Below, piece by piece: positions 4,646-56,693 of a stretch of 64,000 nucleotides of DNA. The notes beneath the pieces are model-generated. The model was not told the origin of the DNA. It was given only the letters and a program-made list of their open reading frames with translations, and searched no databases. Both the position numbers and the translations under genes were made by a program. The number at the start of each line of letters is the position of its first letter. Within the stretch, counting starts at the first letter, position 1. Source of the DNA: Anthostomella pinea (taxonomy: Eukaryota; Ascomycota; Sordariomycetes; Xylariales; Xylariaceae); the NCBI GenBank assembly GCA_963556695.1, contig CAUWAG010000012.1:3968001-4032000 (forward strand). Reading direction: 5' to 3'.

Positions 4646-6151
4646 TCAACCCCCAGCAATAACGTCTCCCTTACATGGTTGCCCGTATAGGTCTTCGTAA
4701 TAGCTCTTGTCCATCCCAGCTTGTTCCCGAGCCTCTGCATTGAAGGGGCCTTTCACCGCACCCCTAAAGTGCTTCTGAACGTTGCTCCGAAAGACTTGTA
4801 CCGGATCAGTGCCTTCTTGCTGGCATATCCACGACAGCCATCTGTGGCCCGTCGTAACATGTGTGATCTCGTCATTGTGGATGATGGTTAAGACGTCGAC
4901 GCTCTCCGCGTCCTTGGCGTTGCGGAACTTCTCGATCGTAAGCGGGTTGATGTCAAGACCACGAGCCTCGTGGACGAGAGCGATCACGCTTATCCTGGCG
5001 CGAAGGTCGTGTGCCGTCCTCGTGGCAGACTCCCATAAGCCATGGTGGACTGGCAAATCACCGAAATGGCTGCCCAGTTCTTCGAGTCTTGCACGCAGGA
5101 GAGAAAAGTGCTTCGCCTCGTCGTTGGCGACTTTGAGCCAGTCATAATAGAAGGTCCTCGGCAGCTGTTGGGACAAGTCTGTGGTCGGCACCGTCGTCTG
5201 AAACGTGGCGAACCTAACGCATATATCGATCGCAAGGTCGATCGCCCATTGTTCTATGTTGGCCAGGGCATGGAGAATGGTGATCCTGCTCTTGAGACTT
5301 CCTCCCTTCCCACCCTTGGGCATCTGCCCCGGTCTCACCTCTTTCAGGTCACCACGTGGGGGCTCATCAGGCGCAGTTACCGTTCCAGCCCCAAGCCGCA
5401 TGGGGGAAGGTGACTGCTCCCGCGTAGCGAATAGGGAGAACAGGTGGCTAGTAAGCTCAATCTTGTGTTCGGGGTTGCATGTGTTGAGGATATGGACACA
5501 CCAGTCGCATAAGGACGCGCCCTCGCCAAGGAATGTAGGAGATCCGGTGGGCTGCTCTCTTCGGCCGTGTTTGTATTTTACGGTCTCGCTAACTGGCTCC
5601 ATCTTCGCAAGCTGCACGTTGTCTGCCTCGGCAAATTGCAAGCTCACCCGGCCATCGTCGACGGTAACGGGAAATGTGCAGGCCTTGCTGCCGTAACTCG
5701 ACTCACCAGTCTCGACATTGAAGTCATACGCATGCCACGGACACGACGCGATGTAGGAAGAGTCCTCGATGTCGATGTGAGCATCTGTCATTGGACCGCC
5801 TGCATGGGGACACTCAGCCTCCATGGCGTAAAAAGTCCAACCATCGGGCTTTTGTAGCGCGGGCACACCGGACCCATGGATTTTTGGGAGACGGAAAAGA
5901 ACCAGGCGCTTGCCATTTGACAGTAAGAGCGAGTACCGGGAATGCGTGAGATTTGCAGTCTTTCCTATGGCGATGGTCGACATACTGCAGCGTGGTAAGA
6001 ACCAACACGCTGGTTCTCTGACTACTAGACTCGGTCCGAAGGATGAAAACAAGTTCTTGGTCAGAAACGGAGAGATGTTTCGAAACTTGGCATTCATGAT
6101 AGATCCCCAACGGTCGCGACGCGGGGCGAGCTGAGGAGCGCAGAGAGACAC
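4646..6151 (-). CDS. Rieske [2Fe-2S] - DUF455 ferritin-like fusion protein, 501 aa
   Basis: Two domains in one intronless frame. Residues 65-175 form a Rieske-type iron-sulfur domain with C114-P-H116 and C137-P-W-H140, the four cluster ligands. Residues 205-490 match DUF455, a ferritin-like four-helix fold. It shows LCDWCVHILNT, then NIEQWAIDLA, then ANDEAKHF, then VHEARGLD, and finally HNDEITHV. These Glu and His residues are placed as di-iron ligands. The first ~56 residues (basic, with Phe/Leu/Ser) could be a mitochondrial presequence. An internal start at M57 (MSTIAIGK) is the alternative. By family logic the Rieske part could pass electrons to a di-iron oxidase or hydroxylase centre, but no substrate is known to me. 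Confidence 0.82.
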   Translation of the reverse strand: MSLCAPQLAPRRDRWGSIMNAKFRNISPFLTKNLFSSFGPSLVVREPACWFLPRCSMSTIAIGKTANLTHSRYSLLLSNGKRLVLFRLPKIHGSGVPALQKPDGWTFYAMEAECPHAGGPMTDAHIDIEDSSYIASCPWHAYDFNVETGESSYGSKACTFPVTVDDGRVSLQFAEADNVQLAKMEPVSETVKYKHGRREQPTGSPTFLGEGASLCDWCVHILNTCNPEHKIELTSHLFSLFATREQSPSPMRLGAGTVTAPDEPPRGDLKEVRPGQMPKGGKGGSLKSRITILHALANIEQWAIDLAIDICVRFATFQTTVPTTDLSQQLPRTFYYDWLKVANDEAKHFSLLRARLEELGSHFGDLPVHHGLWESATRTAHDLRARISVIALVHEARGLDINPLTIEKFRNAKDAESVDVLTIIHNDEITHVTTGHRWLSWICQQEGTDPVQVFRSNVQKHFRGAVKGPFNAEAREQAGMDKSYYEDLYGQPCKGDVIAGG

Positions 6152-7394
6152 CGGGTTGTTTCAGAGATTTCAATGATGGAAGCGTCACAGTTGAGACGTG
6201 AACATTTGTGATGCAGTTCAATGTTTGAGATGTGCGGTGTGGCTGATACGTGTGGCTGAGTGTCAGTGGCTTGTCATCTGATTGTCGGCCAGGCCAGCTG
6301 GTCAGAGCCGGGGACACCTGCCGCAGCGGTGTTTAACCTTTTGCAAGTTGACGGTCTCAATTGAGACGATCCGGTCCCAACTTTGTTCTATTTTGACAAC
6401 CTCGCACAGCGCCCACGGCGCGTTGGCCTGGATTTTAATTTGCAAGGAGCTATCTCGGAAGGTACCAATGTGGGAACCTGATCTGACCGCATCAATATGA
6501 TGACGACGTTTCCCCTAGGTCCAAGAATATCGTGGCTCAAGCGACTGCCCATGCATCCTGGAACACGGAAAGGGCGGGTGCCGAAGTTGAGGCTGAATTG
6601 TGGTCGGCCATGATGCCAAGAATGTTTGATCGGTGCCGTCGTCGCTTGCAAGTTGCACCGCAGCGTCGCATTGGCGCCTCCGCGGATGCCTGGGACTTGG
6701 GCGCGGCTCGAATTAAGCATTTTACGCGGTTACAGTCTCGTCTCAGACCCCGGCCTGCCGTCCTCTTCCGGTCCACCCCCGACTCCAACGTCTGAACGTT
6801 TTCTCGGTGTCCATGATCCGCCCGTTAACCATCTTTTTAGAGCTGGCCGACTCTGGGGTGGACAACTGGGGAGACCAATGAGTTGTCCTCGTTGCCTGCG
6901 AATGCCGCTGTTTCGTCCGCAGGGGACTCGCGGTGCTAGGGGGTCATGATGATGGCAGCGTCTCGACCCATGTTCTAGAACTTCATTGCCTCATTCGGCG
7001 TTGTTGACGTTAGACGACAAGCCTGTGCTGCGCTGACGACCGGTCCTGCCTATCAACCTCGTCTCAAGTTTGCTCGCCTATGTCGAGGACCGCTGTGAAC
7101 AGGCGCCTCATTTCTGGTTCAATGCCTCCTGTGTTTGCTAATTGTCGTTCCGTGGCCGATCCGAGGGTCGTGTCGCCGAGAAGGGGATCCTTCAGCCAGA
7201 AGCACAACCGTACAAAAGGCTTTCCCATCCGGCATGCCAAGTCTTCATACCCTTCTCTTCATCCTCTATCAGTCTACCATCCCAATAGTTGATCATACCT
7301 TTCTCTTCGCTATCATATAATTGCATCAGCTCGTCGCCGGCCGACCTTTACTACTCATTCAGCCTCCTGAACAACCACAAACCCACCAGACAAA
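6152..7394. other. Intergenic, no gene seen
   Basis: Upstream of the Rieske-DUF455 gene and the small secreted-protein gene, which are divergent. The frames present overlap on both strands and show no family features. A pyrimidine-rich leader (7230-7394) precedes the ATG at 7395. Confidence 0.5.
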
Positions 7395-14808: not shown

Positions 14809-17800
14809 TTAGACGTACCACATGGTAGTGTTCATGAAGGCGACGATGTCACCAGGCTGCTTGGGGTTCATCATGGGAACCAGGGGAGGAGCCTCGAGGG
14901 GCTTGGCACCAGAGTAGACCTCCGAGTCCTGCTTTCCAAATGGGAAACCCTCCTTCAGAATGGGCAGCTCGCGCTGGCTGGAGGCGATGTTCTCGTGGCA
15001 ACGAGCACGCTGAGAGGCCAAGTGCGAGTAGTAGACTGCCGGGTGAAGAGACACCGGAGTTGTAGAACGGCAGTACTGGTAGCACTGGTGGTAGAGCATG
15101 GCCTGAAGGTGATCCGGCTTGCACTGAGCGTCATCATAGATGACCTGGTAGTGAACAGGGCGAGCGGTACCCTGAATGGCCACATGAGAACAAAGGTAGA
15201 AGTCCCAGTGATGAGGGTGAGTGGCGTCGTGCTCAACAAGAGTGCCGGGAAGGGGGTTGTTGTTTCGGTCGCCGCTGGCCTTGTCACCAGGCTTGGGAAA
15301 GAAGCGAATGTGATGTCGCTTGGTGGCAACAATCACAGTGAACTTGGGCGGAGCCGGAGCGTTCGCCTCGCGGAACATTCTCTTGATCTCCTTGAGTTCT
15401 CGCTCGATGACCTGCTGGAACTGACCTTCAGCACAGCCATCGCGAAGGAAGTAGACGTGCTGGGGAAAGCACTTGTTGGTGTCGATCCAGTACTTCAGAA
15501 GGCGAGGGAAGAGGGTGTGCATTGTGGTGCCGGTAGCAATCTCGACCCTCCAGCCGTTGGTCTCGCAGGCGGCAGCATATCTCGTCGCGTGCTTGTCGGT
15601 AGAGACTGTCATCGCTGCTATCGATGGAGCACTACTACCGGGCGAAGCGTGAGAGACATCCAGGCCGATCATCATTGTCGGAACTCGGAAGAATGGAGGG
15701 GTTGTGGCGTTGGGTCCAGCAACCTTGCAAGTGACACCACCCAGTTTGGCGTTGACCTTCATCGCCACGTTGCTCATGTACTGAGCTTGACACTTCTCGA
15801 CGTGGGCTCCCTGGAGAACCTGAGAAACAACGTTCCATCGGCAGTCCATGCTCTTCTTGATACGGTCGTATACAAGCTGGTTCTTGTTGGGGACGACGAA
15901 GAAGAGGATCTGAGGAAATGCCTTGTTCTGCGAGCCAGTTCGAGACCACGCGGCCTCGACCATGGTACCGTAATCACCCATGCTGAAAGGAAGCATCATT
16001 GTGACAGCGGGCTTCTCAATCACTCCACCGTGGGTGCGGTACGCCTGCTGGAACTTGCTGGCGAAAGCCTCCAAGCCCTGCTTGGTACAAGCGTCGCCGC
16101 AGCCGACGAATGCCCAAGAGACGAGCTTCTTCGCGTTGGGCTCGAGGAATCTTTTGCCACGAAGATCCCAGCGACCAGACACTCCAGGGTTGACCTTCTG
16201 GTTGGCGTACGTGATCTCGGGGTTGGGAAGGACGCGGGCGCTGGTGACCGTCATCTGTTCCTGGATCTTGATGCCGAACGCAGCAAGGTTCGGGTCCTTG
16301 CTGAAACCGAGGTGCGCTATGCCAGACAGGATATCCTTCTTGCGTTGGTCCGGACGAGTGACCGCAAACTTGATCATCTGCGCAGTCTAGAGTGAGGTTG
16401 TTAGCGGTGCGGTGCTCGAAGGTAGGATGTGAAGAATGGCCGACTCACCTCGTCTGGAGATAGCTTGAAGGAGTACCGCTGGTACTTAGACACGTTGCAG
16501 ACCTCAAGCGGGAACAATGCGCCACGAGTGCTCTCCATGATAGGGAGGCTGGGGTACTGAAGGCGAAGGTGGTAGGTCTCCCAGAAGTACTGCCAGACGC
16601 TGACGTTCTTGGTGGTGCCATCTTTCTGTCTCTTGTTGAAGAAAACAGCCTTGGAATGGGCACCCTCCTCGCCATACTTCTGATCGAAGAGGAGTTTGCC
16701 GACAGTGTAGACCTTGGGGTCGCCAAGCTTGCCACGGTGGTTGACCACGAATCTCAGCTTGTAGATTCGTCGCAGATGTCTGAACCCGTCTGACTGGATC
16801 CAGACAGGGTTGCCGGCCTTGTCCTTCGCCTTCACCGGTCGAAGAATCTTGACCAGATCGATGAAGTTGGCTTTCTGAAGTTAGCTTGGGGGCCACTCGG
16901 CTATCTTGGCCAATGGACACTTACAGTTCTTCCACTGAGGATTGTATGCGTTGAGGATACGCAGGGAGGTGTTGGCCAGATCGTTGATGGCCCAGAAGGC
17001 GGTGTTGGCGACATCCACATTGATGCTGAGACCAGTTCCGCCGGTCTTGATCGACTGCGAAGCCATGGTTAGCCTGAACGATGACTGAGTGGTCGATTGA
17101 TCCACTTACCTCACCCAGACGGATGGCAGAATAGTATCCCTTCTGTGCGACACAGTGGTTGGACAGAGCAAACTCGCTAACTTCAGGAGCGTAGAAGTTG
17201 CGGCGGATGCTCTGCATGGTCGAGGCAGGGTAATGTCGCATGCAGTGGTCGAAGAAGTCTGTGGAGAAATGAGTACACAGGCAAAGGATTGGGCCATTGG
17301 AGTTACTTACTCATGCATTCCAGGACGTGACTGTCCCAGGGGATCTTGCCTTCAAGGTAGGTCTTCAGATAGGCCAGGCGAACGACGTTGGTCTGCTTTC
17401 CATGGAGGTAGTAGACGCCCTTGTTGCCAACGAGCTTGTTGGTCTTGCCGGCCTCATTGTCGAGATCAACAGTGATGCGCATCTCGCCACGTGGGATTTT
17501 GGCGGAGGACCTGGAGCAGTGTCAGCCGGTGAACTTGGTGTCAGCCAAACAATGACTTACCAAGCCAGCTTGTTGCCGTCAAAGAGCCAAGTGCCGCCGT
17601 TCTTCTCGAGGAACTGTGTGACCGCTCGAGAGTTCCAAACCTTCTTGATCAAGGCTCGCGAGTCCTTGGGGTTCGGGCTGACGGAAAGCTTCATGGCATT
17701 AGCAGAGCACCGCAGACAGAAAGATAGGATGAACTTACATCATACTGAATGATGTCCTGATCCTTCCAGCCAACAACAGGGAAGGTGTTGAGCTGCACCT

Positions 17801-32287: not shown

Positions 32288-34037
32288 TCACAATCGACCC
32301 TTCTCAGGGCGCCACATCTCGTTGTACAGGCGCATCGCATTGACGCGATCCGGGCTCGCCTGGTCCAGCGAGTTCATCCCAATCAGCTTCATATTGAGCA
32401 CAAGCTCCTCCGCAAGAACTATCCCCCGCAATATCAGCATCGGCATGAAAAGCCAGAACAACAGAAAGGCAAGAGTAACGATACGAAACCGGAAGTACTC
32501 ACTATCACAACACCGCTCAACCCCCTTCTCCCCATACGCCCCCAGCGCGTAGAAGAACGGCCGCGCGATCCCCACCGCCGTGGCGCCCAGACACAGCGCC
32601 TTCAGCACGTCGGCGCCGTCGCGGCACCCGCCGTCCACAAGCACCTCCAGCCGCCCCAGCACTTCCGGGCAATACGTCCGGATCTCCAGCAGCGTCGTCA
32701 GCGCGTCGGGCGCCGAGTGCGCCTGCCGGCCGCCGTGGTTGCTCAGCACGATGCCCTGACACCCGTGCGCCAGCGCCAGCCGCGCGTCCTCAGCGCTCTG
32801 CACGCCCTTGACAACCACTGGACCGTCGCCCCACGCCTCCCGGATCCAGACGAGGTCCGCCCAGGTTAGCGCGGCGTTGAGCTGCCCTCCATCGACGTGC
32901 GACCGCATCCCGAAGCCCGCCTTCTCGGCCTCGACGGGCAGGCCCATGGCCAGCGCCTCTTGCGCCTGGATGCGCCGGTCGATGGTGCGCTTGCCGATCG
33001 TCGGCGTGTCGACCGTCACCCACAGGCTGCGGAAGCCGGCCGCTTTGGCGCGCCGAATAGTATCGACGGCGACGCTGCGGTCGTTCGGGATGTATAGCTG
33101 GAAGTGCAATTGCGCGGGTGGGAGCTCCTCCGCGGCCGCGACGCCGGCGCCTGTCGATGGCTTTCCTTCATTCACACTGGCACCCTTACCCTCATCCCCA
33201 CCCCCCTCCAGCGCCCTCTTCTCCCCCTCAAAAGCCTCCATTACCTCCTCCATACTCTGTGTCGAAACCGTGCTCAACAACCCATGCACCCCGCGCCTCG
33301 CCAGCGCCCTCACCAGCGCGACCTCGCCGCCGTCGTGCGCGCGCCCCAGCTGGCCCATAGCCGAGCAGTAAAAAGGGAACGCGGCACCGGCACCGAGGAT
33401 CGACGTGCGGGCGCTGGCCCGCGCCACGCCCCCCTGCGGCCAGATGCGCGGCCGGAAGCTGACGCGGCGCCATGAGGATAGGTTGGCGGCGTGCGCGAGC
33501 CCCGAGTTTGCGGAGGATGAGACGTACGAGTAGGCGTTGGGCGAGAGGACGGCCTTGGCGGCGGGCTCGAAGTCCGGGAGGGCTATGCAGTGGGAGATGT
33601 GCGGGGGGCCACTGCCGGCGTTGGTGGTGGAGGTTCTGGAGTTGGGGTTGCCGTTGGGGTTCGTGTCTGCATTTGATGCGGAGGCGAGGGGGAGTGAGGC
33701 CACGGTTGCGGGGTCGACTTCGCCTAGGCAGATGTCCTTGGGCAGGAACTGCAGTATGTCCGGCGAGTGAATCTTGCGGAACTCGAATGTGGCATCCTGG
33801 AGTCACGATGAGTATTCGTCTGAGTCGATGTTGAGATAGATAGGGGAGGAAACTTGTTACGGACGGGAGGCATACTTGCCCGCCCTGCTTGAGGAGGATG
33901 GCCGCGCCGCCGGGGTGCAGGTCTAGGTATGCGGTCACGTCGTACACCTTGCCGTTTATCACCAGCCAGCACGAGGACGGCGTGCCGTGCTTGGTGATCT
34001 CGTCCGCGCTAAACATGATGGTCTTGGGAAGCTTCAT
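32288..34037 (-). CDS. Flavocytochrome b2-type FMN-dependent 2-hydroxyacid (L-lactate) dehydrogenase, 528 aa
   Basis: Exons are 34037-33876, 33796-32503 and 32418-32288. Residues 8-80 form a cytochrome b5-like haem domain with H41-P-G-G and a second candidate ligand H64 (FRKIH). Residues ~100-520 form the FMN_dh TIM barrel. It shows GAAFPFYCSAMGQL, LHFQLYIPNDRS, WVTVDTPTIGKR and VVVKGVQSAEDA. IVLSNHGGRQ follows with the catalytic-type His, then VDGGCRDGADVLKALCLGA and GIARPFFYALGAYG. Loss of an obvious presequence suggests a cytosolic or peroxisomal rather than mitochondrial enzyme. A Gly/Glu-rich insertion interrupts the barrel around EKRALEGGGDEGKG. It lies 0.9 kb from the RiPP precursor and could be a cluster accessory or an unrelated primary-metabolism gene. 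Confidence 0.85.
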
Positions 34038-34937: not shown

Positions 34938-35279
34938 CTACTTCTTCGCAGCCTCATCCCTCTTGTCCCAACCGTACCATGCAGCAGTCTCGATGTCTTC
35001 CAGAGAAGCAGCTTCGTCACGCTTCTTGGTGGGAGCCTTGTTGTCCCTCTTATCCCAGCCGTACCAGGCCGCGGTCTCGATGTCTTCGAGAGATGCGGCC
35101 TCGTCACGCTTTTTGGTGGAAGCCTTGTCGTCTCTCTTGTCCCAACCGTACCAGGCGGCCGTTTCGATGTCCTCCAAAGAGGCGGCCTCGTCCCTTTTCT
35201 GGTTGGCGGACTTGCCGAAGAGCGGGAAGGCCAAGGAGGCGGACGCAAGGGCCGCGGTAACGAGGAGCTTGATCTGCAT
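34938..35279 (-). CDS. Kex2-processed repeat RiPP precursor, 113 aa (dikaritin-like)
   Basis: Intronless. A signal peptide MQIKLLVTAALASASLAF is followed by three exact copies of a ~20-residue unit (DEAASLEDIETA followed by AWYGWD and KR). They are separated by short spacers ending in KKR (DDKAST, DNKAPT). Every unit is bounded by dibasic KR sites for Kex2 in the Golgi. The layout of signal peptide, acidic recognition stretch, short aromatic core and KR matches precursors of ustiloxin, phomopsin, asperipin-2a and victorin, where the core lies just before KR. The likely core is AWYGWD or WYGWD. The three copies use different synonymous codons yet encode the same residues. The gene is head-to-head with a UstYa oxidase gene. 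A secreted signalling peptide is the alternative. Confidence 0.85.
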   Translation of the reverse strand: MQIKLLVTAALASASLAFPLFGKSANQKRDEAASLEDIETAAWYGWDKRDDKASTKKRDEAASLEDIETAAWYGWDKRDNKAPTKKRDEAASLEDIETAAWYGWDKRDEAAKK

Positions 35280-35440
35280 GATGGTGGAGCGTGCTTCGAA
35301 CCGGTTCTTGTGTAGATGGCGGGAACCGATTGGACTCGAGATGGAGATGGTATGAGGGCTGTATGAGGAGGTGGTCTGCTATGTCTGCCGTGGTGCGAGA
35401 AAGTCCTCTCCGGGTCGATAGGCTGGGCAGGAACAAGGTG

Positions 35441-35447
35441 GCTTTAT
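35441..35447 (-). promoter_or_regulatory. TATA box of the RiPP precursor gene
   Basis: Minus-strand TATAAAG about 165 nt upstream of the precursor ATG. Confidence 0.45.
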
Positions 35448-35779
35448 AGACCTCAGCACCCTCCTGCCGGTCTGCTCAAGTTCCAGCGGGGAAGCGCGGG
35501 AACTGGGAGAGAAAGGGGAGTGCAGTCAAGTGCGGGCAGTCGTGTCTCTGCGGCTTACATTGCCTTTGTCTCTGACGTCGGCTTGTCAACCACCAATCGT
35601 GGATGACAACCTGAGGCATTTATAAGCTTGTTGTGCAGAATGCGGCAGGTGGTGACATCGTATCGCAGAAGGACAGGGTCCGGAAACCGGTTCAGGGTCG
35701 TGAACTTGCGCATATAGGCTATCTGGTTGACAATCATCGTTATCATTCCCCGCGCCAAAGCGTTGCTGTGCCGCTGGGT

Positions 35780-36070
35780 AATGATGTAGAAGCCTGGTAA
35801 GTTCCGTATCACGATGCAAGCGGGCCTATAAACTTACAGTATAGATGCAGTAGGGCTGACTTGATCTGCACGAGATTACTCATCTGCAAGGGAAATGATG
35901 TAGACATGTGATAAGTTCCGCATCACGATGCGAGCTGGCCTGTAAACCTTCGCCGTCGTCTGTGATATCTCGTTTTCGTTCATGCTGGTCTGACTCGGGA
36001 TTGTGTGCAGTAACGTTGGAGCTGCAGTAGGGCTGACCTGATCTGCACCAGATTACTCATCGGCAAGGCA
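35780..36070 (+). repeat. Diverged tandem duplication in the RiPP promoter
   Basis: Unit 1 spans 35780-35893 and unit 2 spans 35894 to about 36070. The units share both ends with scattered substitutions, and unit 2 is longer by one internal insertion. Confidence 0.6.
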
Positions 36071-36341
36071 ATTGACCTCCCTTCTTCGTGTTAGTCTTAT
36101 CACTATGCTTGACGTATGATTTGCCGTCCAAGATATGGGGTATGAATAAGCGCTGCTTGTAGCTGTCGATGTGATACAACCCTCGGTTATGATTCCATGA
36201 CCTCGAGTGCCAGACGGCCCCCCCACTTCCTTTTCACATTCTCCATCAATTCAGTTCCCGTACAGTCTTCTCCCTTTCCCTCACCGAGTCTCTTCTGCAC
36301 GATACGGAAATACTAGTTCCACATTCAATACTTCGAGCATC

Positions 36342-37314
36342 ATGGATTCCGAAAAGTCCTTTGAGGAAACTGACCTTCTGAGAGAAGACGACGTTAACCT
36401 CGACGTGGAGTCTCGAACATATCCCCGCAGAAAGCCATGGACGTCTTGCATCATAGGCCTCCTCAGTCTTGTTGTCGCCTTGGAGACCATTTGGCTCGTG
36501 CTGCTCGGGACGCGTGAAGCTCCTAACCCGGCCCTGAACTTGTACTGTATGTCCAAGACCGAATACAATTGATATATCTTCAAAACAGCTTACCACTCGC
36601 ACCATAGCCCCGGCCAATGCAGCTGTTCGATACAACACTGTCAAGCTCGACGCTGACGACCAGAACCCCTACGTTCATCAGAAGAGCACCGATGTTTTGG
36701 ATCAGATGTGGATGGATCTCTACGACTGTAAGCTCTTGTATACCGCTCGCCTTCGAATACCAACTTACTAACTATACTCACAGTCGGCACGGTGGGCTTG
36801 AGCACTTCAGAAGCTGCGCAGCTGGTAGACCAAACCAAGCCCACTCCCAACGACCCGGACACCTATCCGGTCATGATCACAGTATTCCACAACATCCACT
36901 GCCTAAACTTGATCCGCAAGGCGCTCTGGAGGGAGGACTACCCCGACGCTCTAGAGATGACCGAGTTCGGAACAGTGAACCGGACCGCGCCAAAGGCCCT
37001 TCATATCGGTAAATTCCCAGCCAGAACAACCCCCCGTGCCAGCAGCACATGTTGTGATAAAACCTACCGGCCGCTGACTTGTGTGTCCGAATCTTGCAGA
37101 CCACTGCGTCAACTCGATTCGAGAAGCCATGATGTGCAGCGCGGACATCACACCGATACCGTTCCACACCGTCAACGAGACCGACCTCCACGTCTTCCCC
37201 GAGCTGGCAGCCACGCATACGTGCCGTGATTTTGACGCCATCCGTGAATGGGCCAGGCCGAGGCAGGTGGAGGCTTGGAAGATGGACATCCAGCTCCACG
37301 ATGATGATGTTTAG
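36342..37314 (+). CDS. UstYa-like (DUF3328) oxidase, 254 aa
   Basis: Exons are 36342-36546, 36608-36727, 36784-37008 and 37100-37314. All junctions keep frame. A short cytoplasmic N-terminus is followed by one membrane helix (SCIIGLLSLVVALETIWLVLL, about residues 35-56). Next comes the YSPAN motif typical of the family. The paired signatures HNIHC (HxxHC) and HIDHC close the list, and are thought to bind metal. UstYa/UstYb proteins catalyse oxidative macrocyclisation of core peptides in ustiloxin-type RiPP pathways, probably in the secretory lumen. The start at 36342 has a good context; an upstream in-frame ATG at 36207 would add 45 residues before the helix. It is divergent to the precursor, so it is the likely cyclase. 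Confidence 0.9.
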
Positions 37315-37914
37315 GGTCTGTACGTTTAGCAGTAGGGGTGGATGACTCAGTCAAACCCACCCTGAACGCCCACTTGTTGAATGGCGCGCAAGCCACCGTG
37401 GCGTTCAGGGAGGTGGCAGTGCACCAACAAGGCCAATAGGGCATTTTTGGGCCACTTAGCCCACAGAAGTATTTTCAGAGATACAACAAGAACACGGATT
37501 ACACCAGAATATACGTTTTCACCCATCTAAAAGCCCCCACGCTCTGTTTGACACCACTCGGCCGATGTGTTATGTTCTTTCACTCAGCCGTTCTTTCGAC
37601 CTCACGTGGTCGTTGTAGCCTTCTTTGTTTCTTTTCAATCCCTACTAGGCATAATATTGAGCTTCTTTACGAAATCAACAAACAATTTGTTCCTCAAGAC
37701 CCTTTGACACTGAGGGACGTGAACAAGGAGAATCAATAGCTAGAAATGGAAGAGTACTTCAGTCTCCCCTCCCCGCTCAAGAGCGTGGTACATATCGATT
37801 CAATAGTAAGTACATCTCCAACAGATCTAGTAATATTGAAGCTACAGTCGAATCATACCAGGGACTCACCCAAGACAGTAGAAGCGCTAGTCTTCTCACC
37901 CATATTGCATCATC
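37315..37914. other. Intergenic, no gene seen
   Basis: Downstream of the UstYa gene. Short frames at 37548-37739 and 37746 onward have no domain support. Confidence 0.45.
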
Positions 37915-38916
37915 ATGGCCTGGCAAACGATCCGCAGGGCTCTTTGGAGTTTCCTCCTATTCGTAACCCTTCTTCTTCTGGCCTTCCCAAGCGCCCTCAC
38001 GGAACTAATCATCACCAGTATACGGATCGAGCACATCAAGGACAATACACCCATAGACGAATACCGCTTCGAGAACGCCGAAGTTCTGGGCTTCCAACGC
38101 GCATACCCGGTCGATCCCTGGAGGTCCGGGTGCGTGTCCACGATGGCGTAAAGGACGCAAATAAGTACATCACGATCAGCAACAACGTCTCAAGCCAGTC
38201 TTACCGCGACTGGAAAAAGGTAGTAGTCGATCTGCCACGCCTCCCGCTCGGCAACTGGAACACAGCCGAGATCGGGCTAAAGCCGGACACGGTGAATTGA
38301 CCCCCACACCGGAAAGGGCGAGCTCAGGGTGAACAGTGTCTCACGGACAGAGCTGCTCGAGGTAAGTAACCCCTGGCACCCCATGAGCATTGAATATGTC
38401 GACTTCGTGAAGGTCAGGTCGCTGAAGAACGTGTCTACCGTTCAACGCACACGAGCCGATGTCGTGCAGGTCGTCTCGCACCCCTTTTTCGAGACACCCG
38501 TGGTTATGAAGATCGCCAGCTTTCCTTCAGACCTAGCCATCCAGGCAATGGAGAGAGAGATTGGTATTTATCAGCTCTTGGAGAACACGGACATTGCGCC
38601 GCGGTTTCTGGGCCACGTCACCGAGGATGGACGGGTCATCGGGTTTCTGATTGAGTATATTGCAGATGCACGAACTGCGGCGGCTGTCTGGTCAGACGAG
38701 GTAAGAGACGCATGTAAGGGTGCTTTTGCACGGCTGCATGAGAGGGGCATTGTGCATCGAGATGCGCATAGGGAGAATTGTTTGATTTGCGCGGACGGAA
38801 CACCAGTTCTCGTCGATTTCGAGCTCTCCACAGGAGACGAATCCTCATGTGCTCGAAAGGGATTTTGCTTTTTTCGAAGGAGTTACAGTAGGCTAGGCCT
38901 TGGTCGTGCGAAATAG
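37915..38916 (+). pseudogene. Broken protein-kinase-like gene with N-terminal membrane segment
   Basis: Three consecutive frames read as one protein. The first (37915-38151) encodes MAWQTIRRALWSFLLFVTLLLLAF, a membrane or signal segment. The second, 38110-38300, continues with VRVHDGVKDANKYITISNNV. The third, 38320-38916, holds a kinase-like fold: VVMKIASFP (Lys-strand), then GFLIEYI, then LHERGIVHRDAHRENCLI (HRD...N) and VLVDFE. Moving between frames needs small frameshifts. At 38290-38310 an extra ~19 bases, GGTGAATTGACCCCCACAC between CAC repeats, look like a duplication-insertion. The C-terminus ends abruptly after DFE. The family resembles fungal kinase-like proteins often mislabelled in databases. 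An undetected intron cannot be excluded. Confidence 0.5.
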
Positions 38917-44181: not shown

Positions 44182-44556
44182 TATAGTTGAACGGGAAGCG
44201 TGTACCAGCGGTTCAAGATCTTCGGCGAAGTTAGGTATTGCAGGCCGCCAATGCATCCCCTTGTCCTGTCAGGGCGACTTTATTGGTGCTACGGAACTGG
44301 AGTTAGGCACCTGCATTAGGTACTACGGCGTTGGGTCCAGGTTGCTGTTTAACAGCCTCGCGACAGCGCTCTTGGGTCGTTGTGCACGGTTATCTCTACA
44401 CGGATAAGTGAAAATACGTGATTGCTGACTATATGTCAAGACAGGGAAGTCGGTCACGAAGAGGAGCATTGGCTAAGCAGAGTTCGAGAATGAATTCATT
44501 CAAGGTGAAATGAGTCGCTTTTGCTGGATAATCTCAAAGTACAACAGACACTACAT
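44182..44556. other. Intergenic, no gene seen
   Basis: 375 bp between convergent genes. Nothing is recognised. Confidence 0.5.
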
Positions 44557-45709
44557 TTACTCAATCTTGATAGCGACCTTGCCGAAGTGCGATTTTGCCC
44601 ACTAGACACCACGATCAGTATCTCACCCATCACGGATATCAGAAACGCACCCACCATGTACTCATAAGCCTCCCGCGTCTTATCGAATGTGAACACCTTC
44701 TCATCCACCACGGGGTGGATATCATTCGCCTCAATCGCCCTCACCATGTCCTCCATGAGGGCCCTAGAGCCAACATACACACCGCGGACGGTGCATATAT
44801 GGTACAGCGTCTCAATCACAGAGGCCTCGATCTTGGCGCCGCCGAGGAAGCCGATGAAGCTGATGATGCCCTCAAACTTGATGGCTTGAAGGCTCTGCTC
44901 GACGGTGCCAGAGCCGCCGACCTCGATGACGTGGTCGACGCCCGCGCCATCGGGCGTCAGGCCCTTGGCCGTCTGGCCCCAGTCCTTGTCTTCGTTGTAA
45001 TTGAGCACGTGGTCGGCGCCGAGCTTCTTGAGCGTCTCGGCCTTGGCCTTGCTGGATGTCGTGGCGATGACCGTGGCACCGGCGGCCTTGGCGAACTATA
45101 GCCGGGGATGCTGTGAGTGTTGAGTTACGAGGAAGGTGTGGCACTGATACGTACCTGTAGGGCGAAGATGCTGACACCGCCGGTGCCCTGCACGAGGACC
45201 GTCTCGCCGGGCTTGAGAGGTCGCAGGCCGTAGAGCGCATTCCAGCTTGTGAGCGCCGCGCAGGTCAGGGTGCTCGACTCGACGTGGTTGAGGTTCTTGG
45301 GCGCGCGCACGACGCCCGTCTCACTGAAGACGCCGTACTGGCGCAGTGTGCCGTCCAGCACACCGCCGAGCCCCGTGCCGGCGGCGGCCTGGTCGACAGG
45401 GCCGAACTGATGGCCCTGGTTGAAGAGGGTGACGACCTTGTCGCCCCTCTTCCACTTGGTGACCTTGGAGCCGACCTCGGCGATCTCGCCGGCGCCGTCC
45501 GAACCCGGCACTACGGGGAAGTTGGCCGGGAACGGGTACAGGCCCTTGGGGATGATGAGGTCGCGGTAGTTGAGCGAGGCGGCGTGCAGCTTGACCAACA
45601 CGTCGTGCTCGCCCACCTTGGGCACCGGGACGTCGACGTATTGCAGGCCGTCGAAGTCCTTGTCCGTGCCCGTGACGGACCATTGCTTCTGGCTTGAAGG
45701 GGCAGACAT
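44557..45709 (-). CDS. Zinc-type alcohol dehydrogenase / quinone-oxidoreductase-like protein, 346 aa
   Basis: Exons are 45709-45155, 45095-44655 and 44601-44557, all junctions in phase 0. The N-terminal GroES-like domain has LVKLHAASLNYRDLIIPKGLYP, PVVPGSDGAGEIAEVG and WKRGDKV. A Rossmann fold follows with VLVQGTGGVSIFALQFAKAAG, VIATTSS and LGADHVLNY. The protein ends in KSHFGKVAIKIE. The catalytic-zinc Cys at the usual position is Asn-Tyr (SLNYRD), typical of the zinc-independent QOR-like branch of the MDR superfamily. It is expected to reduce small carbonyls or quinones with NAD(P)H in the cytosol. A likely UTR intron was not sought. Confidence 0.88.
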
Positions 45710-46638
45710 GGTGAATTGTTGATGGGTGATTAGGGAGATGGTGGAACGGGTTACCGAGAAAGGTCTGGTGATGCTGTCAGAACTCTAGACTGCTATGTGA
45801 GACTTCGAGGGGCCATTACCCTTTAATACTCTCTCGTTTGCTTGTCTCCGGTTTTAGATATCTCAGGTTGTAACCTGTTGATGAGTACACACGGCGGTTC
45901 TATGTCCCTGGGAATCGGATGCCTTAACAATCACAAGCGGTTGCAATAAACTCTTGACACTCCTGAACTCCTTCGGTCATGGTTGCGTCGCAATTCTCCA
46001 GTCCCCCACGTCATGGATATGATGCAATGGCGTGAACGGGGACGACCCCTGTTCTTCTGTTTAGTCATTACTGTTGGATTCTGGGCTACGTTAGCCCATC
46101 CATAGTCATCCTTCAGGATCACCATCCCCATCTGTGACTCTGTCACATACGTGGCCACATAAGGCCACGTATCCTTTTCCTTTAGTATCTTGGATATATA
46201 GGGCCACTCTGGCCGCTCCAGAGTAGCTGGAATTCCTCTCCTTAATAGAACACTTTGAAATCTCACAATTACGCAACTGCCGCGGACGGTGCCTCAAATG
46301 GTGTACGGCTTGGTCCGCAATGCGCATGCCCGTCCCAGGCGGAGGTGCCCAGAGCGGAGACCATGTGCGTGTCCGTCCGCACTGGGCGACATGACAGCAC
46401 ATCGCCGTTACACTATTATTGGTAAGCTCGTGGGCACTCCTACGACGAGTTCCACCTCGTCCATGCGGCTCAATGTTCCCCCTCATTATAAACATGGCTA
46501 GATCACTTCCTGCACTCGACGGAGTCATGGAGCATGACAACCAGCGCGCACCGCATCGAGCTTGACATCTCATGGGGAATACCAGGGAATTGCATAGAAA
46601 CACTTGTTCCAGGCGGAATGCTGGATCATGCTCTGAGC
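45710..46638. other. Intergenic with solo LTR copy 3
   Basis: Upstream region of the oxidoreductase gene plus the LTR at 46072-46267. Frames at 45931-46603 owe their length to the LTR. Confidence 0.5.
46072..46267 (-). repeat. Solo LTR copy 3, 196 bp, inverted
   Basis: Reverse complement of the element at 41632 and identical to it. Flanked by the direct repeat ATTAC (46067-46071 and 46268-46272). Confidence 0.92.
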
Positions 46639-49625: not shown

Positions 49626-52600
49626 ATGGCGCGTGACCTGAGGAGTACCCGGAAACGGAAACGCGACCAGGAGTCAGCGAGCTCACAGTACCTTGTCGTT
49701 GTCCTCTCCAGCCAGGCGGAAGTCCTTGCCAGCCAGGCGGCAGCAGACCAGGGTATGTACAACACTGCCTCATTGCTCTCACACGCAGACTTGCTAACTA
49801 TTTCACCAAGCCATGACCCCACCGTTGCCTGCAGTCTCCCCTACGGTGCCAGCACAACCCGAGCAGATCGATAATGTTCCGGCAGACTGTTGTCTCTTCT
49901 GTCGCGGGCGTGGTGGCAAAGCCGCTCAAGCATGTGTGTTCGATGGGGGTATTGATGGAACTGATCCCCGTTGTACGAGATGCCGAGATGAGAAGAGAAA
50001 ATGTCGACAAGCAACATCCGAACAGATACGAGCTCTTGCAGCTCGTTGTGACCACTGCAAGAAACGAGGGTTCAAGACCTGCAATGGACAGAGGCCGCAT
50101 TGTGATGTATGCGCCAAGCATAAGACACAACACCTGTGTTGGACGCGTCGACAAGAACCATCTAGCATCTCAAATGCAGCCACACCAGCAACCACAGATG
50201 TGGGAACATCAGCGCCCCAACAGCAATCTTTTTCCGACCCACTCTCTCATGAAATGGATCTGGATGATCCAGAAGATGATACCGACGCCTCAGCCGGAGT
50301 CGGTGTCTCAGAATCGTCTCAAGCAGGCTCCGCGCCAGGGAAGGCTGCATCTAAGTCCCCAACCCCCATCAGTGAAGACGACGATGAAGCTACACGGAGG
50401 AGACAGACCCAAGGGTTCAATCCAGCCTCTTCACTAGAGTTCGTTGGTCGCTCCCTCCGTAGTCAGCCAAGCGTATCGTACCATGGACAAGAGCACGAGG
50501 CCGACGGCGACTATGATCTTTACATCCCGGGTGCATCCAGTCCTGACAGTATCATAGATAAGGAGGTCGAGTCGAAAGGATCGGTCGACTACCAGTCATC
50601 TGCCGCCGAAGAGGACAACGACGAAGAGTGCGAAGAAGAAGCTGAGATTGTGGAGGAGATCAGCAAATCGACCAAGCCTCGATCGATCAAGCCTCGATCG
50701 ACCAAGCCTCGATCGATCAAGCCTCGATCGACCAAGCCTCGATCGACGGAGCCTCGATCGACGAAGTCCTCAAGCGCGGCCAATGGTAAGGGTATTGATT
50801 TCAATCTGCCACCCATTGACAGCATAGAAGGTGCCTTCGCCGACATGGCCACTACGGCCCTCAATCTTGGACTCGACGAGGTATTAGAAGAGCTGGCAGA
50901 CCGCCAGATAGAGGTGGGAACCATGTGTTCTGGCACTGAGTCGCCTCTCCTGGCGTTTGATTTGCTGTCTAAGGCCCTTGTAGAAAACGGCCAGCGTCCC
51001 CTCCGGGTACACCAGAAGTTTGCTGCCGAGATAGAAGTTTTCAAGCAAGCCTTCATCGAGCGGAATCAATCGCCTGAAATCATATTCAGGGATGTACGAG
51101 AGTTCATCCCAGAAGAGGCGACGACTGCGACCACAGCATACGGGGCAGAGGAGCTTATCCCTTCCGGTCTTGATGTTCTGATAGCTGGCTTTGTGTGCAA
51201 AGATCTGTCTCGGCTAAATACGAACCCAAAAGGTCTTCAGGACAACGGCGAATCAGGCGATACTTGGCTGGCCATATACTCATATGCCAAGCGTTTCCGG
51301 CCAACCATTGTACTCCTGGAGAACGTCAAAAGCGTCAAGAAAACCTGGGAGGAACTTGTTTCCTTGTGGGACGACATCGGTTATGAAGCAGGATGGCTAT
51401 TCCGGGACACGAAACGCTACCACATTCCACAGACTCGAGAACGGATGTATATGGTTGCCATAGAGCGGAGTCACTTTGGCGAAGGGGTCCAGGAGGCTGT
51501 GAGAGATTGGAAGACAAAGATGAATGAATTACAGCGCCAGTGTAGCACACCTTACGAATCGTGGCTCAAGAACATGCTGCACGAGTCGAGCGACCACAGT
51601 GCGCTAAATTCCGAGGTGGACTGGGCGTTGTGCAAACTCAGGTACGATCACATCCGAGCGGAGGAGGGATTAGGCATTCTCCGCCCTGTGACCAAATGGA
51701 GCGAGAACGGTACAGTAAGGTAGGTGGCAGCAACAAGAACGCGCCGATCAAAACTCCAAAGCTAACATTGTCTGTCAGGCCACCTGATTTCGCCAATCGC
51801 GCATGGTACAAGTCTCAATCTTCCAGAGTCTATGATGCTATCGATGTTGCATATCTACAAGCAGCAAACAAAGGCCTTGATCAGATGTACAAGATGGCTG
51901 TCCTGGACGTGAGTCAAAATGTGGATCGATTCAAAAACAGCCTGGGTGTTCTCCCTTGTATCACACCCAACGGGTGCGACTTCGCGACCAACCGTCAAGA
52001 AGCACTGAGCGGGAAACAGCTCTTGGTTCTACAGGGGATGCCCCTCAACAAGCTCCTCTTCGGCACAGAAACTCAGAAAGAATGCCAGGATCTGGCTGGT
52101 AATGCCATGACTACGACTGTCATCGGTGCTTCGATAATATCCGCCATCATCTCCGGCTCGAAAGCTTTTCGGCCATCTCTTGCTGCGAAGAGTCAGCTAG
52201 TATTGCCTACCACTAAAAAGCACCTGCGAGCCGGCCTCAAGGAGCCAACTCTTCTCCCTCCTATCGACACGAAGGAAATCGACCTTGAGGAGCTCATGCG
52301 CGGGGCCAGGATGAGCTCGCGTCTGTGCAATTGCGAGGGGGAGAAGATCATCTGCAAGTATTCCATTCGTGTGTGCTCTGGCTGTGGGCACACCGCATGC
52401 GAGCGCTGCGCTGGGAATCCGAAGCATCGATACGATGCTTCTGCCTCAATACTTCGAAGCAACCGCACGCTGACTCCAATCGAGTTCGTGCAGAAGTGGC
52501 GACATATGTTGTCAACACGCTTCAAGTTCGGCAGTTTCCCCGACGTTCGTCAAGTTGCCTCATCTTTCCAACCAAGGACCGACCTTATGAGAGACTTCAT

Positions 52601-55600
52601 CGACCGTGTTGTAGAAGCTGGAGCTGACACGCACTTTTATGGTTTCCGCGATATGCAGAGGCAGGACGGCGGTTGGACAGTAACATACGGCTCGACTCAT
52701 GCAACCCTGGAACTCCGCATCGGTCACGCAGCAGAATGGCTCTTGTTCATCAACTGTCCTAAAAAGCGCCCTGGCAACGACCCTTTGCGCAAGTTGCTCC
52801 GGAGCCCTGTCGCTCGTGCCAAAGTCGGCTCCTCTTTGCTCGATCTGAAGTGGGAATTCTCTTTCCCTTCGGAAGAACTGCACAAACTCCGGATAAGCGG
52901 TGTCGGTTCTCCAACCAGCTCCTGGAGATGCCGTCTCGGTCTATTGAAATATCAAGAGGAGACTGTTCCGACCACTCTACGGATTGAGAGCCACAGCAAA
53001 TGCAAAGCTTTGACAGGAAAGTTTGCACTGTTATCGGAATGCGGAACTGCTTCAAGCAGTCTATACAAACGTCCAACCGACCCCCCGCTTTACGTCTTCC
53101 TAGACCCTGATTTCCTTGGCAATTCCGACGAAGACAGCTTTGTCTTTAGCCACGACTGTACTCGCAAAACCTACGGTGATGGCCGATTGTCTTTGGCGAG
53201 CCTTGGATCTTCATGGCGACCGTGGCATATCCGTGACGGAGCAGTGCACAGTGTCGACACTACCGTTACTCAGAGCTGGAAAGCTGTGAGCATGAGTCTG
53301 GAACTAGTCGAGACGCAACTCGCGGTCAGCGTCCCCAGGAACGCTGCCTCCCTGGGACCAAATGCCGACTGTTCCCACCCCTCGACTATCTTGGAAGTGC
53401 AGATACCAGAACGTCTACAGGTCATTACTGAGGAATCCTGGGTTTTGAATCGTGCGAAGCGCCGGCCGTCACTCTCCACCTGGCAGTCACTCAATGGGAG
53501 CAGCACTGTAACCTGTGCTTGCGCACCTGTGTATCCACACATCCTGTGGCACGTAAACGAGAAAGGAGTCGCCGTTCCTCACGAAGCGCGCCAAGCAGCA
53601 GCCGGATTTGAACGTGCCATCAAAACACGAGCGCCGATCTTCCATGTCGATTCCACGATTCAAGGAGAGACTACCCACATCGCGGTCGCAGTGAATGTTG
53701 CAGCTCTTGTGCACCGTGCAGAAGGGCGTCTAGCACATGTTAACCGGAACGATTCCGCCTGGCGTCTTCATGTTGATCATGCAGAGCTGCCAGCCGAGCG
53801 ATTCTCGAAATTCGTTCTGAAGAGCAACTCACTTGATCCTCCGTTCGAACCGACTCCGTCCATCAAATACTTGCTTCACGCTCAACCTCGAGCATTGTCT
53901 TGGATGAAAACCCAAGAGTCAGGCATCTCGCTCATGATTACCGAAATCGAAGAGGCCATCCAGGGTGATCTAGGTTGGAGAGCAGAAGCAAGAGCGCAAA
54001 CCAAGGTCTTGGTTCGTGGGGGCGTGCTTGCAGATCTACCATCTTTTGGAAAAACAGTCACGACCATTGCTCTAATTCAGAGTGAGTTCGAAGACTTTTC
54101 GCCAAAGGTCCTGGTTCAGAACAACCGAAAAGTCCACGTGGGTGAGCACACAGGTGCACTTTTCGACACAGCTGCGACGTTGATAGTCTGTCCAGCCCAC
54201 ATCGCATTGCAGTGGAAGACTGAGCTCGAGAAGTTCCTGGGCCGCAAGTACGTCGATTACAATGTGCATTTGGTGCAGACATACGCCGAGCTACAAGGGT
54301 TGACAATCCGCGATATCCAATCCAGCAAAGTCTTGGTGCTTGCATGGACTGTGTTCGCTGAAGAGAACTATATTTCTGATCTGGCACACTTCAGTGCTAT
54401 GCCACAGCCTAGCATTACGGGGCGTCGTGCATTCGATACCTGGTTTGATCAGGCTTCTCGGGATATCCCAGATCAAGTGAAGGCATTCCGGACCTCAACG
54501 ATCGATGACTTCAGAGCCACTACAGAGGAAGGCCTGGCGGATCGTTTGCAGCGCGAGGACTTCAAAGTCACTCTGCCGATCAAGATTCAGCATGGGCGTG
54601 CTTACCAGCCGCACAATGCCTCCAACGCAAAGGTCAAGGCAAGGGGCAACACTCAAAGCAAATCGAAGGCGTCGGAAGCTCCTACAAGTGATCAAGTGCC
54701 ATTGATACATTTGTTCCGTTTTAATCGACTTGTCGTTGACGAGTATCATTATCTCAACAATGATAAACATCTCGACAACGTCGTCGCCTCAGTGAGCATC
54801 AAACGCATCTCTGCTTTGAAGCGGTGGGTCCTGTCAGGTACTCCAGCTTTGAACAACTTCTCCGACGTGGACCAGATCGCATCGTACCTTGGGATCAAGC
54901 TTGGCAGGTATCACTTCGGCGACGGCGTCGAGACAACACAGTCTGATAACATGCGTCGTCGCGATCAGACCCGTGTTGAAGATTTCCTCTCGCAGACCGA
55001 GACCATGTCAAGGCAGTGGCATGAGGATCGACACCGCCGCGCCCAGGAATTTTTAGATCTCTTCGTCAGACAGAATGAACCCTCCCTGGGAAACATTCCC
55101 TGCGTCGAAAGAATTGTGCCGAGCGAACTCGACATTGGACACCACGCCACCTATTTGGAACTGTCTGAATATGTCGCCTCGCATCACATGGCTATCAAGA
55201 AGCTCAAGAACAAAGTGAGCTTAGACAAGGAAACCAGACTCTTCGACAAGAATACCCGGCTCAATGACAGTCTGTCCAACTCTGCAACAGCTGAGGATGC
55301 GTTGTTGAAGTCTGCGCTCACCTCGGACGGGAAATCAGCACTCCAAACCTTAGCCGAGCTAAGATCATCCCAACAACGCAAGGTACAAAAGGAATTGAAA
55401 GATCTCATGGCTGGTTTCGAAGGTTTGGGCAAGGCTGACAAAATCTGCATACTGTACGACCGCTTCAAGAAGGATATCATGAATCCCGAGTGGCTCGGCG
55501 ATGTTGAAGCCACCAACATTGCTTGCGACATGCTTGAAGAGGCCAAGGAGAAACCCAATCGTTCAGCATTCTCGGAGCTGAAGGGCGTAAAAGGGGAGAA

Positions 55601-56693
55601 GAAAGCAACGCTTGCAAAAAAGCGCTTGTCCAGTCTTCGTGAGACAGCCCGTGACCTTGCCCAACATACCAGGTCGACTAGGTTCATCAGCGAAATTCAA
55701 GCCCTTCTGGGGCCATTGACTGAGAGGGTGGAAGGACAACTGTTCAAATGCAGCAACCCCGGGTGTGACGGGGACGCCAGCCTTGCTCAGTTACGCCTCA
55801 TCACTCATTGCGGTCATAAAGCTTGCGAGGAGTGCCTGTCGACGCGGATCGACGCCGAGAGATGCGTCGCCCCGATGTGCAATATTTTTTTGCAGGGCGA
55901 GAGTCTCGTCAAGGCCACGGACCTTGGTTCGAGAACGGAGCCTGCCACTCCAGGTTACTCTGGGAGGAAGATGGCAGATGTTATGGACATCATAGCCGGA
56001 TTTTCAGAAGGTGAACAAGGAGTCATCTTTGCGCCCAACGACGAGACAGTGGGGGTCCTGAAAACCGTGCTGGACCGCAACGGGGTACCTTGCCATTCAC
56101 TTCTTGGCTCCAAGAGCGCTGATACCGCAAAGACTATCGAGGCGTTCAAAGGCAACAGTGTTCGCGAAGATCGGCGCAAAGTGCTTCTCCTCAACATGGG
56201 AAGTGAGTCGGCAGCTGGCGCGTAAGTCTCATCTGTTTCTTTCTTGATCAATGCACTAATACCTGGCAGCAACCTAGTCAACGCAAACCACATCATCTTT
56301 GTCGCACCTCTGCTCTCGAAGACACAATACGAGTACGACTCTGCCATGACTCAAGCTATCGCACGAGTTCGCCGATACGGGCAGGAGAAAACCGAGAAAA
56401 CCGTCTACATCTACCACATGATCGCGCAGCGTACCATCGACGTGGACATCCTCGAGCACCGTCACAAGCGTGTAGACGGCATCACCACTTCCGAGTCCAC
56501 GATGAAGATGCCCCAGGCAGATGAGCGGAAGGGCAAGACGAAGCTAGTCAAGAACATGGAGGGACACATGGCTTTGGTGCCAGTGTCATGGCTGGCGGAC
56601 AAGTCAAAGAGGGAGATCGTCGGCGTAGATGAGAGGCCTGAGAGCTTTGCGTCACTCGTGCGCTTCTCGGACGTTTTTGAACACGACGATTGA
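49626..56693 (+). CDS. DNMT5: DNMT5-type cytosine methyltransferase - SNF2 ATPase, 2300 aa
   Basis: Exons are 49626-49752, 49811-51719, 51779-56221 and 56270-56693, all in frame. Two tandem Zn2Cys6-like clusters come first (Cys70-107 and Cys122-152; the second is CDHC...C...CDVC...C). A low-complexity region follows with six TKPRS/IKPRS repeats. The methyltransferase domain lies at about residues 408-600: TMCSGTESP, GFVCKDLS (catalytic Cys, in place of PCQ), LLENVKS and QTRERMY. A zinc-binding CNCEGE...CSGCGHTACERC lies near 861. The SNF2 core has GKT at about 1435 and VVDEYHYL near 1665. A RING domain (HCGHKACEECL) falls near 2002. The helicase end is QAIARVRRYGQ. The related Cryptococcus enzyme is an ATP-dependent maintenance methylase of hemimethylated CpG. 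A RAD8-clade relative is the alternative. Confidence 0.9.
50671..50760 (+). repeat. 15-bp coding tandem repeat in the DNMT5-like gene, six units
   Basis: Units alternate ACCAAGCCTCGATCG and ATCAAGCCTCGATCG, with the last ACGGAGCCTCGATCG. They encode TKPRS, IKPRS or TEPRS. Confidence 0.9.

What the first reader, a model, noticed from the sequence alone, without database searches (positions are those of the whole stretch)
34938..37314. Compact two-gene RiPP locus: triple-AWYGWD Kex2 precursor facing a UstYa oxidase
The sequence shows a secreted 113-residue precursor with three identical acidic-leader/AWYGWD/KR units and a DUF3328 protein with HxxHC and HIDHC motifs, head-to-head. Established knowledge: this gene pair makes cyclic peptides of the ustiloxin, phomopsin, asperipin and victorin type. 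Inference: the core AWYGWD or WYGWD, with three aromatic residues, would be oxidatively cyclised. I recall no characterised product with this core.
Basis: partly seen in the sequence, partly recalled or inferred. Interest (0 to 1): 0.92.

Follow-up and report, generated by a model that had tools for sequence, protein, structure and literature searches.

The report
Fungal cyclic-peptide gene pair, WYGWD core
Two facing fungal genes look like a small kit for making a secreted, chemically cross-linked peptide: one encodes a precursor carrying the same short peptide three times and the other a known type of peptide-modifying enzyme; the kind is known, but this particular peptide appears undescribed.

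Summary
The minus strand (34938-35279) encodes a 113-residue precursor with a signal-like start and three identical units, DEAASLEDIETAAWYGWD, between Kex2-type sites. The 60-nt units differ at 13 sites, all silent, so the peptide is under selection. Facing it, a four-exon gene (36342-37314, +) encodes a full-length UstYa/DUF3328 protein (165 bits) with both HxxHC motifs. By published rules this is a Kex2-processed repeat protein (KEP) beside a UstYa oxidase: a compact dikaritin-type RiPP locus, closest in layout to asperipin-2a. It is no oddity: four of 20 other UstYa loci read in this genome also carry repeat ORFs with three or more units, and a survey found 1,758 of 7,878 KEPs with a DUF3328 neighbour. 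What seems new is the core: one full-text search found no paper with it, and the genome has no second copy. Cyclisation, the exact core and any activity remain inference; relatives in other fungi could not be searched. Verdict: new member of a known kind; the first interest score was too high.

The parts
34938..35279 (-). Precursor gene (KEP), 113 aa, no intron, stop included
   Evidence: ORF; 87-bp repeat array; all 13 differences between units synonymous
35226..35279 (-). Signal-peptide-like N-terminus, MQIKLLVTAALASASLAF (residues 1-18)
   Evidence: hydropathy profile; no signal-peptide predictor was available
35133..35192 (-). Unit 1: DEAASLEDIETAAWYGWDKR
35106..35132 (-). Spacer 1: DDKASTKKR, second dibasic site
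35046..35105 (-). Unit 2: DEAASLEDIETAAWYGWDKR
35019..35045 (-). Spacer 2: DNKAPTKKR
34959..35018 (-). Unit 3: DEAASLEDIETAAWYGWDKR, followed by the tail DEAAKK
35280..36341 (.). 1,062 bp between the two start codons, with two imperfect direct-repeat pairs (35843-35898/36020-36075, 89%; 35776-35833/35890-35947, 83%); a shared promoter region is inferred
36342..37314 (+). UstYa/DUF3328 oxidase gene, 4 predicted exons, 254 aa, one N-terminal membrane-spanning segment (around residues 37-55), HNIHC and HIDHC motifs
   Evidence: splice model; Pfam PF11807 165.3 bits; motifs and hydropathy

Best explanation
The pair is a compact ribosomal-peptide (RiPP) locus. The precursor enters the ER (shown: signal-like N-terminus; inferred: secretion). 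The kexin Kex2 cuts after KR and, by established knowledge, Kex1 trims the basic residues, giving three copies of DEAASLEDIETAAWYGWD plus short spacers (sites shown, cutting inferred). The membrane-anchored UstYa protein oxidises the C-terminal aromatic part of the peptide, most likely forging a side-chain cross-link at Tyr and/or Trp, before or after cutting (inferred from ustiloxin, asperipin-2a and phomopsin). The acidic stretch DEAASLEDIET serves as a recognition sequence and is trimmed off by general proteases, releasing a peptide of about WYGWD to AAWYGWD (inferred). One UstYa protein without a tyrosinase suffices for a bicyclic product in asperipin-2a, so the small locus is plausible as complete or nearly so. 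Function: probably a diffusible bioactive or developmental signal peptide; the data do not decide which.
For: Protein identity of three units with 13 silent differences. Full-length UstYa domain with both HxxHC motifs. Direct adjacency: about 0.3% chance of a UstYa gene within 2.5 kb of a random point if there are about 30 in the genome (one search gives 51 exon-level matches, 27 loci by my count). Meets the repeat rule for KEPs of Umemura 2020. Tyr in every core: 65.6% of repeats of DUF3328-linked KEPs have Y against 38.2% of the others. A kexin-type P_proprotein domain is encoded in the genome. Four of 20 other UstYa loci read in this genome have repeat ORFs with 3 or more units, and a fifth has two. 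The three best UstYa matches outside the window lie at three of those five loci (noticed after the fact). Asperipin-2a needs only precursor, one UstYa homologue, transporter and reductase (PMC6514808, passages).
Against: No expression or mass data. No relative of the precursor could be sought in other fungi. No transporter, tyrosinase, methyltransferase or S41 peptidase domain was seen among the 28 flanking ORF pieces scanned; the nearest tyrosinase match on the same contig is about 430 kb away. HxxHC motifs do not single out RiPP loci in this genome: UstYa loci where no repeat precursor was found have them too (for example L025, L027, L033). The UstYa cross-links described in the passages I read (ustiloxin, phomopsin, asperipin-2a) are at Tyr; no cross-link at Trp was described there. 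The Kex2 product here (18 aa) is longer than the 13, 14 and 8 aa of ustiloxin, phomopsin and asperipin.
Confidence: 0.75

Rival explanations
1. The precursor yields a linear secreted peptide (signal, effector or mating-type pheromone), and the UstYa gene next door acts on something else or is an accidental neighbour.
For: 6,120 of 7,878 KEPs have no DUF3328 neighbour, and several verified ones are linear. Close-set Trp residues are typical of alpha-factor type KEPs. A canonical alpha-pheromone gene was not found in this genome with two motif patterns, so the role is not taken by a known alternative gene.
Against: Of KEPs annotated as mating factors (227) or fungal pheromones (216) only three have a DUF3328 neighbour. 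No XA/XP dipeptide ladder for STE13 follows the KR sites and the precursor has no Cys. Chance adjacency about 0.3%.
Confidence: 0.15
2. The UstYa protein modifies the peptide without closing a ring (hydroxylation, desaturation or halogenation).
For: UstYa-family proteins install dehydro-residues in phomopsins and hydroxylate or chlorinate in cyclochlorotine (passages). No tyrosinase, needed for ring closure in ustiloxin and phomopsin, is near.
Against: Asperipin-2a shows that one UstYa homologue without tyrosinase can form two rings. Tyr enrichment in UstYa-linked KEPs points to ring closure.
Confidence: 0.2
3. The mature peptide is the whole 18-mer; the acidic half is part of the product and not a recognition sequence.
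For: The acidic half is as invariant as the core in all three units, whereas the spacers differ. By contrast, in two other repeat ORFs of this genome (L026, L029) the stretch after KR varies while the residues before the next KR are kept.
Against: Three units are too few to tell constraint on a recognition sequence from constraint on a product. In ustiloxin the Kex2 fragments are thought to be 13-14-mers around a YAIG core.
Confidence: 0.15
4. The repeat ORF is a spurious frame and the real gene, if any, is one of the plus-strand ORFs overlapping it.
For: Plus-strand ORFs of 162 and 132 aa overlap it.
Against: 12 of 13 differences between units fall on the third codon position of the minus-strand frame and none changes its protein.
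Confidence: 0.01

Closest known systems
Asperipin-2a locus (aprA/aprY/aprR/aprT, Aspergillus flavus)
   Same: Precursor of the repeat type, a hexapeptide-size aromatic-rich core (FYYTGY), a single UstYa homologue, no tyrosinase among its four genes (passages of PMC6514808)
   Different: Core sequence unrelated (two Trp, one Tyr); no transporter domain, and no reductase like AprR recognised, beside the pair (an alcohol dehydrogenase lies about 7 kb beyond the UstYa gene); longer unit with a separate spacer
Phomopsin and ustiloxin loci (dikaritins in the original sense)
   Same: Signal peptide, Kex2-bounded repeats, UstYa oxidase. Phomopsin's core is also a hexapeptide; that it ends in Asp before KR is recalled
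   Different: No YxI core (motif); no tyrosinase, S41 peptidase or methyltransferase domain seen nearby; one UstYa gene instead of 2 or 5 (numbers)
Kex2-processed repeat proteins (KEPs) at large
   Same: Meets the published repeat rule
   Different: The string WYG does not occur in the main text of PMC7329392 or PMC6339444; their supplementary tables were not searchable here
Other UstYa loci with repeat ORFs in the same genome (L023, L024, L026, L029, L036)
   Same: Same gene-pair logic; L026 and L029 also have DE-rich stretches after KR
   Different: Unrelated repeats (PEPHHKG, a two-unit KPYK type, VMVN[TS]QY, IDVADAF, KVIYPD[YH]); the precursor in the window has no paralogue

Membership tests
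Kex2-processed repeat protein (KEP) | N-terminal signal peptide | tested here: inconclusive
   Residues 2-18 hydrophobic, SLA-F cleavage-like site by eye; no SignalP available
Kex2-processed repeat protein (KEP) | At least 3 tandem repeats of at least 8 aa between KR/KK/RK/RR sites | tested here: met
   3 identical 18-aa units bounded by KR; rule read
Kex2-processed repeat protein (KEP) | Cut by kexin in the cell | not testable with these tools
   A P_proprotein (kexin-type) domain is in the genome
UstYa/DUF3328 family | Match to PF11807 above cut-off over the whole model | tested here: met
   165.3 bits against cut-off 25, model 2-218 of 220
UstYa/DUF3328 family | Two HxxHC motifs, suggested as a mark of RiPP-related members | tested here: met
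   HNIHC at 144, HIDHC at 182; criterion in PMC12048977 (passages). Not discriminating in this genome: also at UstYa loci without a found precursor
Dikaritin (newer sense: KEP precursor plus UstYa as class-defining enzyme) | Repeat precursor and UstYa gene in one locus | tested here: met
   Divergent neighbours, 1,062 bp between ATGs; definition in passages
Dikaritin (newer sense: KEP precursor plus UstYa as class-defining enzyme) | Oxidatively modified product | not testable with these tools
   No metabolite data
Dikaritin (original five-gene sense) | Tyrosinase, methyltransferase, several DUF3328 proteins, transporter or peptidase in the cluster | tested here: not met
   28 flanking ORF pieces scanned against Pfam (9, 9, 10) show none of these; the methyltransferase seen (49798-51720) is a DNA methylase. 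Small or many-exon genes could be missed. The nearest tyrosinase match on the contig is about 430 kb away
Ustiloxin/phomopsin type precursor | YxI core | tested here: not met
   Core WYGWD; motif
Ascomycete alpha-pheromone precursor | CxxxGQxCW core and STE13 dipeptides | tested here: not met
   No Cys in the precursor; no XA/XP ladder after KR; CxxxGQxCW motif recalled

The most novel reading that the evidence does not exclude
A two-gene minimal RiPP system in which a single UstYa protein cross-links a Trp-Tyr-Gly-Trp-Asp core through an indole (Trp-Tyr or Trp-Trp bond, possibly bicyclic), a linkage not described for this enzyme family in the passages I could read.
Probability: 0.25. Interest if true: 0.7.

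Novelty: new member of a known kind. Interest (0 to 1): 0.42.

Why it matters
A 2022 review counts only five reported dikaritins (PMC10512285, passages) against 1,758 predicted KEPs with a DUF3328 neighbour. A one-enzyme locus with a core rich in aromatic residues is a convenient test of what a lone UstYa protein does and whether it can act on Trp. The three invariant units with clear silent divergence are good evidence that the encoded peptide itself matters to the fungus.

Tried and rejected
Chance or frame artefact: rejected by the codon-position pattern. A larger cluster: 28 ORF pieces on both sides were scanned against Pfam. Nearby matches are an FMN-dehydrogenase (ORF 32288-33802, -), an APH/kinase-like piece (38296-38913, +) and a zinc alcohol dehydrogenase (44499-45784, -); further off are Argonaute, a Suf protein, a DNA methylase and a SNF2 domain; 16 of the 28 pieces matched nothing. 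Paralogues of the precursor: none; the only other match has E 1.02, and the pattern for WYGWDK+K/R, one mismatch allowed, gives 3 sites, all in this gene. Canonical alpha-pheromone elsewhere in the genome: not found. The strict pattern gave 0 hits; the looser one gave 6 against 6 for the reversed control, and the one with a pheromone-like reading (C4:746890) is a single copy without an open precursor frame. So the pheromone rival could not be closed that way. Solved structures: no relative of the UstYa protein (best E 2.5). Pfam on the precursor and on four of the other repeat ORFs: nothing above cut-off. Plasmid collection: no match. The intergenic repeats are local; one 58-nt piece (35951-36008) has an 86% copy on contig 4 with no repeat precursor beside it. 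Two paper searches for UstYa chemistry brought mostly unrelated papers. No structure prediction was run, because the spliced protein is not a contiguous translation of the window.

Full report
What is there. The window lies in a 53.7-Mb, 16-contig genome, fungal by its genes. Its rRNA spacer carries repeated TACCCTGTAG blocks that I recall as typical of Xylariales; this identification rests on memory only. On the minus strand at 34938-35279 is an intronless 113-codon gene. It begins with a hydrophobic signal-like stretch and holds three copies of DEAASLEDIETAAWYGWD, each preceded and followed by KR. Between copies lies a short spacer ending in a second KKR site, so the period is 29 residues or 87 bp. 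On the plus strand at 36342-37314 is a gene of four predicted exons whose 254-aa product is a full-length UstYa (DUF3328) protein, with one membrane segment near the N-terminus and motifs HNIHC and HIDHC. The genes are divergent, with 1,062 bp between the start codons.

Is it more than chance? The three 60-nt units differ at 13 sites, 12 of them at the third codon position, and no difference changes a residue; about 26% of random changes would be silent, so the naive probability is about 2e-8. The spacers do differ in residues. The units have therefore had time to diverge while selection kept the peptide.

Context in the genome. PF11807 gives 51 exon-level matches, which I group into 27 loci, the window's included. 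A scan for repeated seven-mers before dibasic sites, with manual reading of the hits, gave repeat ORFs with three or more units at four of the 20 (L023, L026, L029, L036) and a two-unit candidate at L024. I set aside as low-complexity or alternative frames three more frames of L023, one of L025, one of L026 and one of L042. A second scan, asking for at least two KR sites and repeated five-mers, found again only L026 and L029, plus one low-complexity frame in L025. In the 64-kb window the first scan found only the ORF of this finding. Signal-like Met starts lie upstream of L024 and L026 (joins not modelled) and in the L029 and L036 frames; the one upstream of L023 is weaker. The closest UstYa matches outside the window are distant (34%, 33% and 37% identity over parts) and sit at L023, L024 and L026. 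HxxHC motifs occur in open frames of 18 of the 20 loci, with or without a precursor found, so they do not single out RiPP loci here. The precursor itself is single copy.

Mechanism. By the published repeat rule the precursor is a KEP (the signal peptide is judged from hydropathy only) and the locus a KEP/UstYa pair. In one survey the genes for 1,758 of 7,878 KEPs had a DUF3328 neighbour, with the count highest at the very next gene; 65.6% of the repeats of these KEPs contain Tyr against 38.2% of the others, while Trp is no commoner (20.5% against 24.5%) (PMC7329392, section 7 read). A kexin-type domain is encoded on contig 2. In asperipin-2a a single UstYa homologue without tyrosinase makes a bicyclic ether from FYYTGY (PMC6514808, passages); this is the best model for the window's pair. 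Oxidation of WYGWD is the likely outcome, with Tyr the expected site and Trp a possible one; ring closure is not shown. UstYa proteins also desaturate, hydroxylate and chlorinate (PMC12048977 and PMC10512285, passages).

What was not found. No tyrosinase, small-molecule methyltransferase, S41 peptidase or transporter domain was seen among the 28 flanking ORF pieces scanned, so the locus fails the original five-gene description of dikaritins but meets the newer UstYa-based one (passages). No paper in the open library contains AWYGWD, WYGWD or AAWYGW. The main texts of two KEP surveys do not contain WYG; their supplementary tables could not be read. A survey of Hypoxylaceae and Xylaria hypoxylon reports, in the passages I saw, a ustiloxin-like RiPP cluster in some species and says that RiPP identification depends on similarity to known precursors (PMC8403587). 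Relatives in other fungi could not be sought. The genome's alpha-pheromone was not located, so the case against the pheromone rival rests on the missing Cys/GQ core, the missing STE13 ladder and the rarity of DUF3328 neighbours among pheromone genes. The defining paper on dikaritins (Ding 2016) was not held.

Verdict. A real, probably functional, compact KEP/UstYa RiPP locus with an apparently undescribed aromatic core: a new member of a known kind. It becomes more than that if the product shows an indole cross-link.

Noticed in passing
49798-56225 (+): A cytosine-C5 DNA methyltransferase ORF overlaps, in another frame, a long ORF with a SNF2 ATPase domain and RING-like cysteines (by eye); the layout recalls DNMT5-type ATP-dependent maintenance methyltransferases (recalled).
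   Followed up: partly
37740-38916 (+): Stretch just downstream of the UstYa gene with an APH/kinase-like match in its second part (38296-38913) and no match in the first, in different frames; looks broken or many-exon. Described only.
   Followed up: partly
35776-36075: Two imperfect direct-repeat pairs (56 nt, 89%; 58 nt, 83%) in the region between the two genes; could be regulatory. The piece 35951-36008 has an 86% copy on contig 4.
   Followed up: partly
4646-6160 (-): One ORF joins a Rieske-type domain to a DUF455 domain.
   Followed up: no
L026:4767-5303 (+): Repeat ORF with eight VMVN[TS]QY-KR units between two UstYa genes: another likely RiPP locus of this genome.
   Followed up: partly
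L023:2163-2879 (-): Ten PEPHHKG-KK repeats near a UstYa gene, resembling the di-histidine kind noted in PMC7329392.
   Followed up: no
L029:4782-5192 (+) and L036:6792-7268 (+): Repeat ORFs with four IDVADAF and three KVIYPD[YH] units (the last copy of each ends the open frame) beside two and three UstYa genes.
   Followed up: no
14809-16386 (-): Argonaute ORF with Piwi, Mid and linker-2 domains.
   Followed up: no
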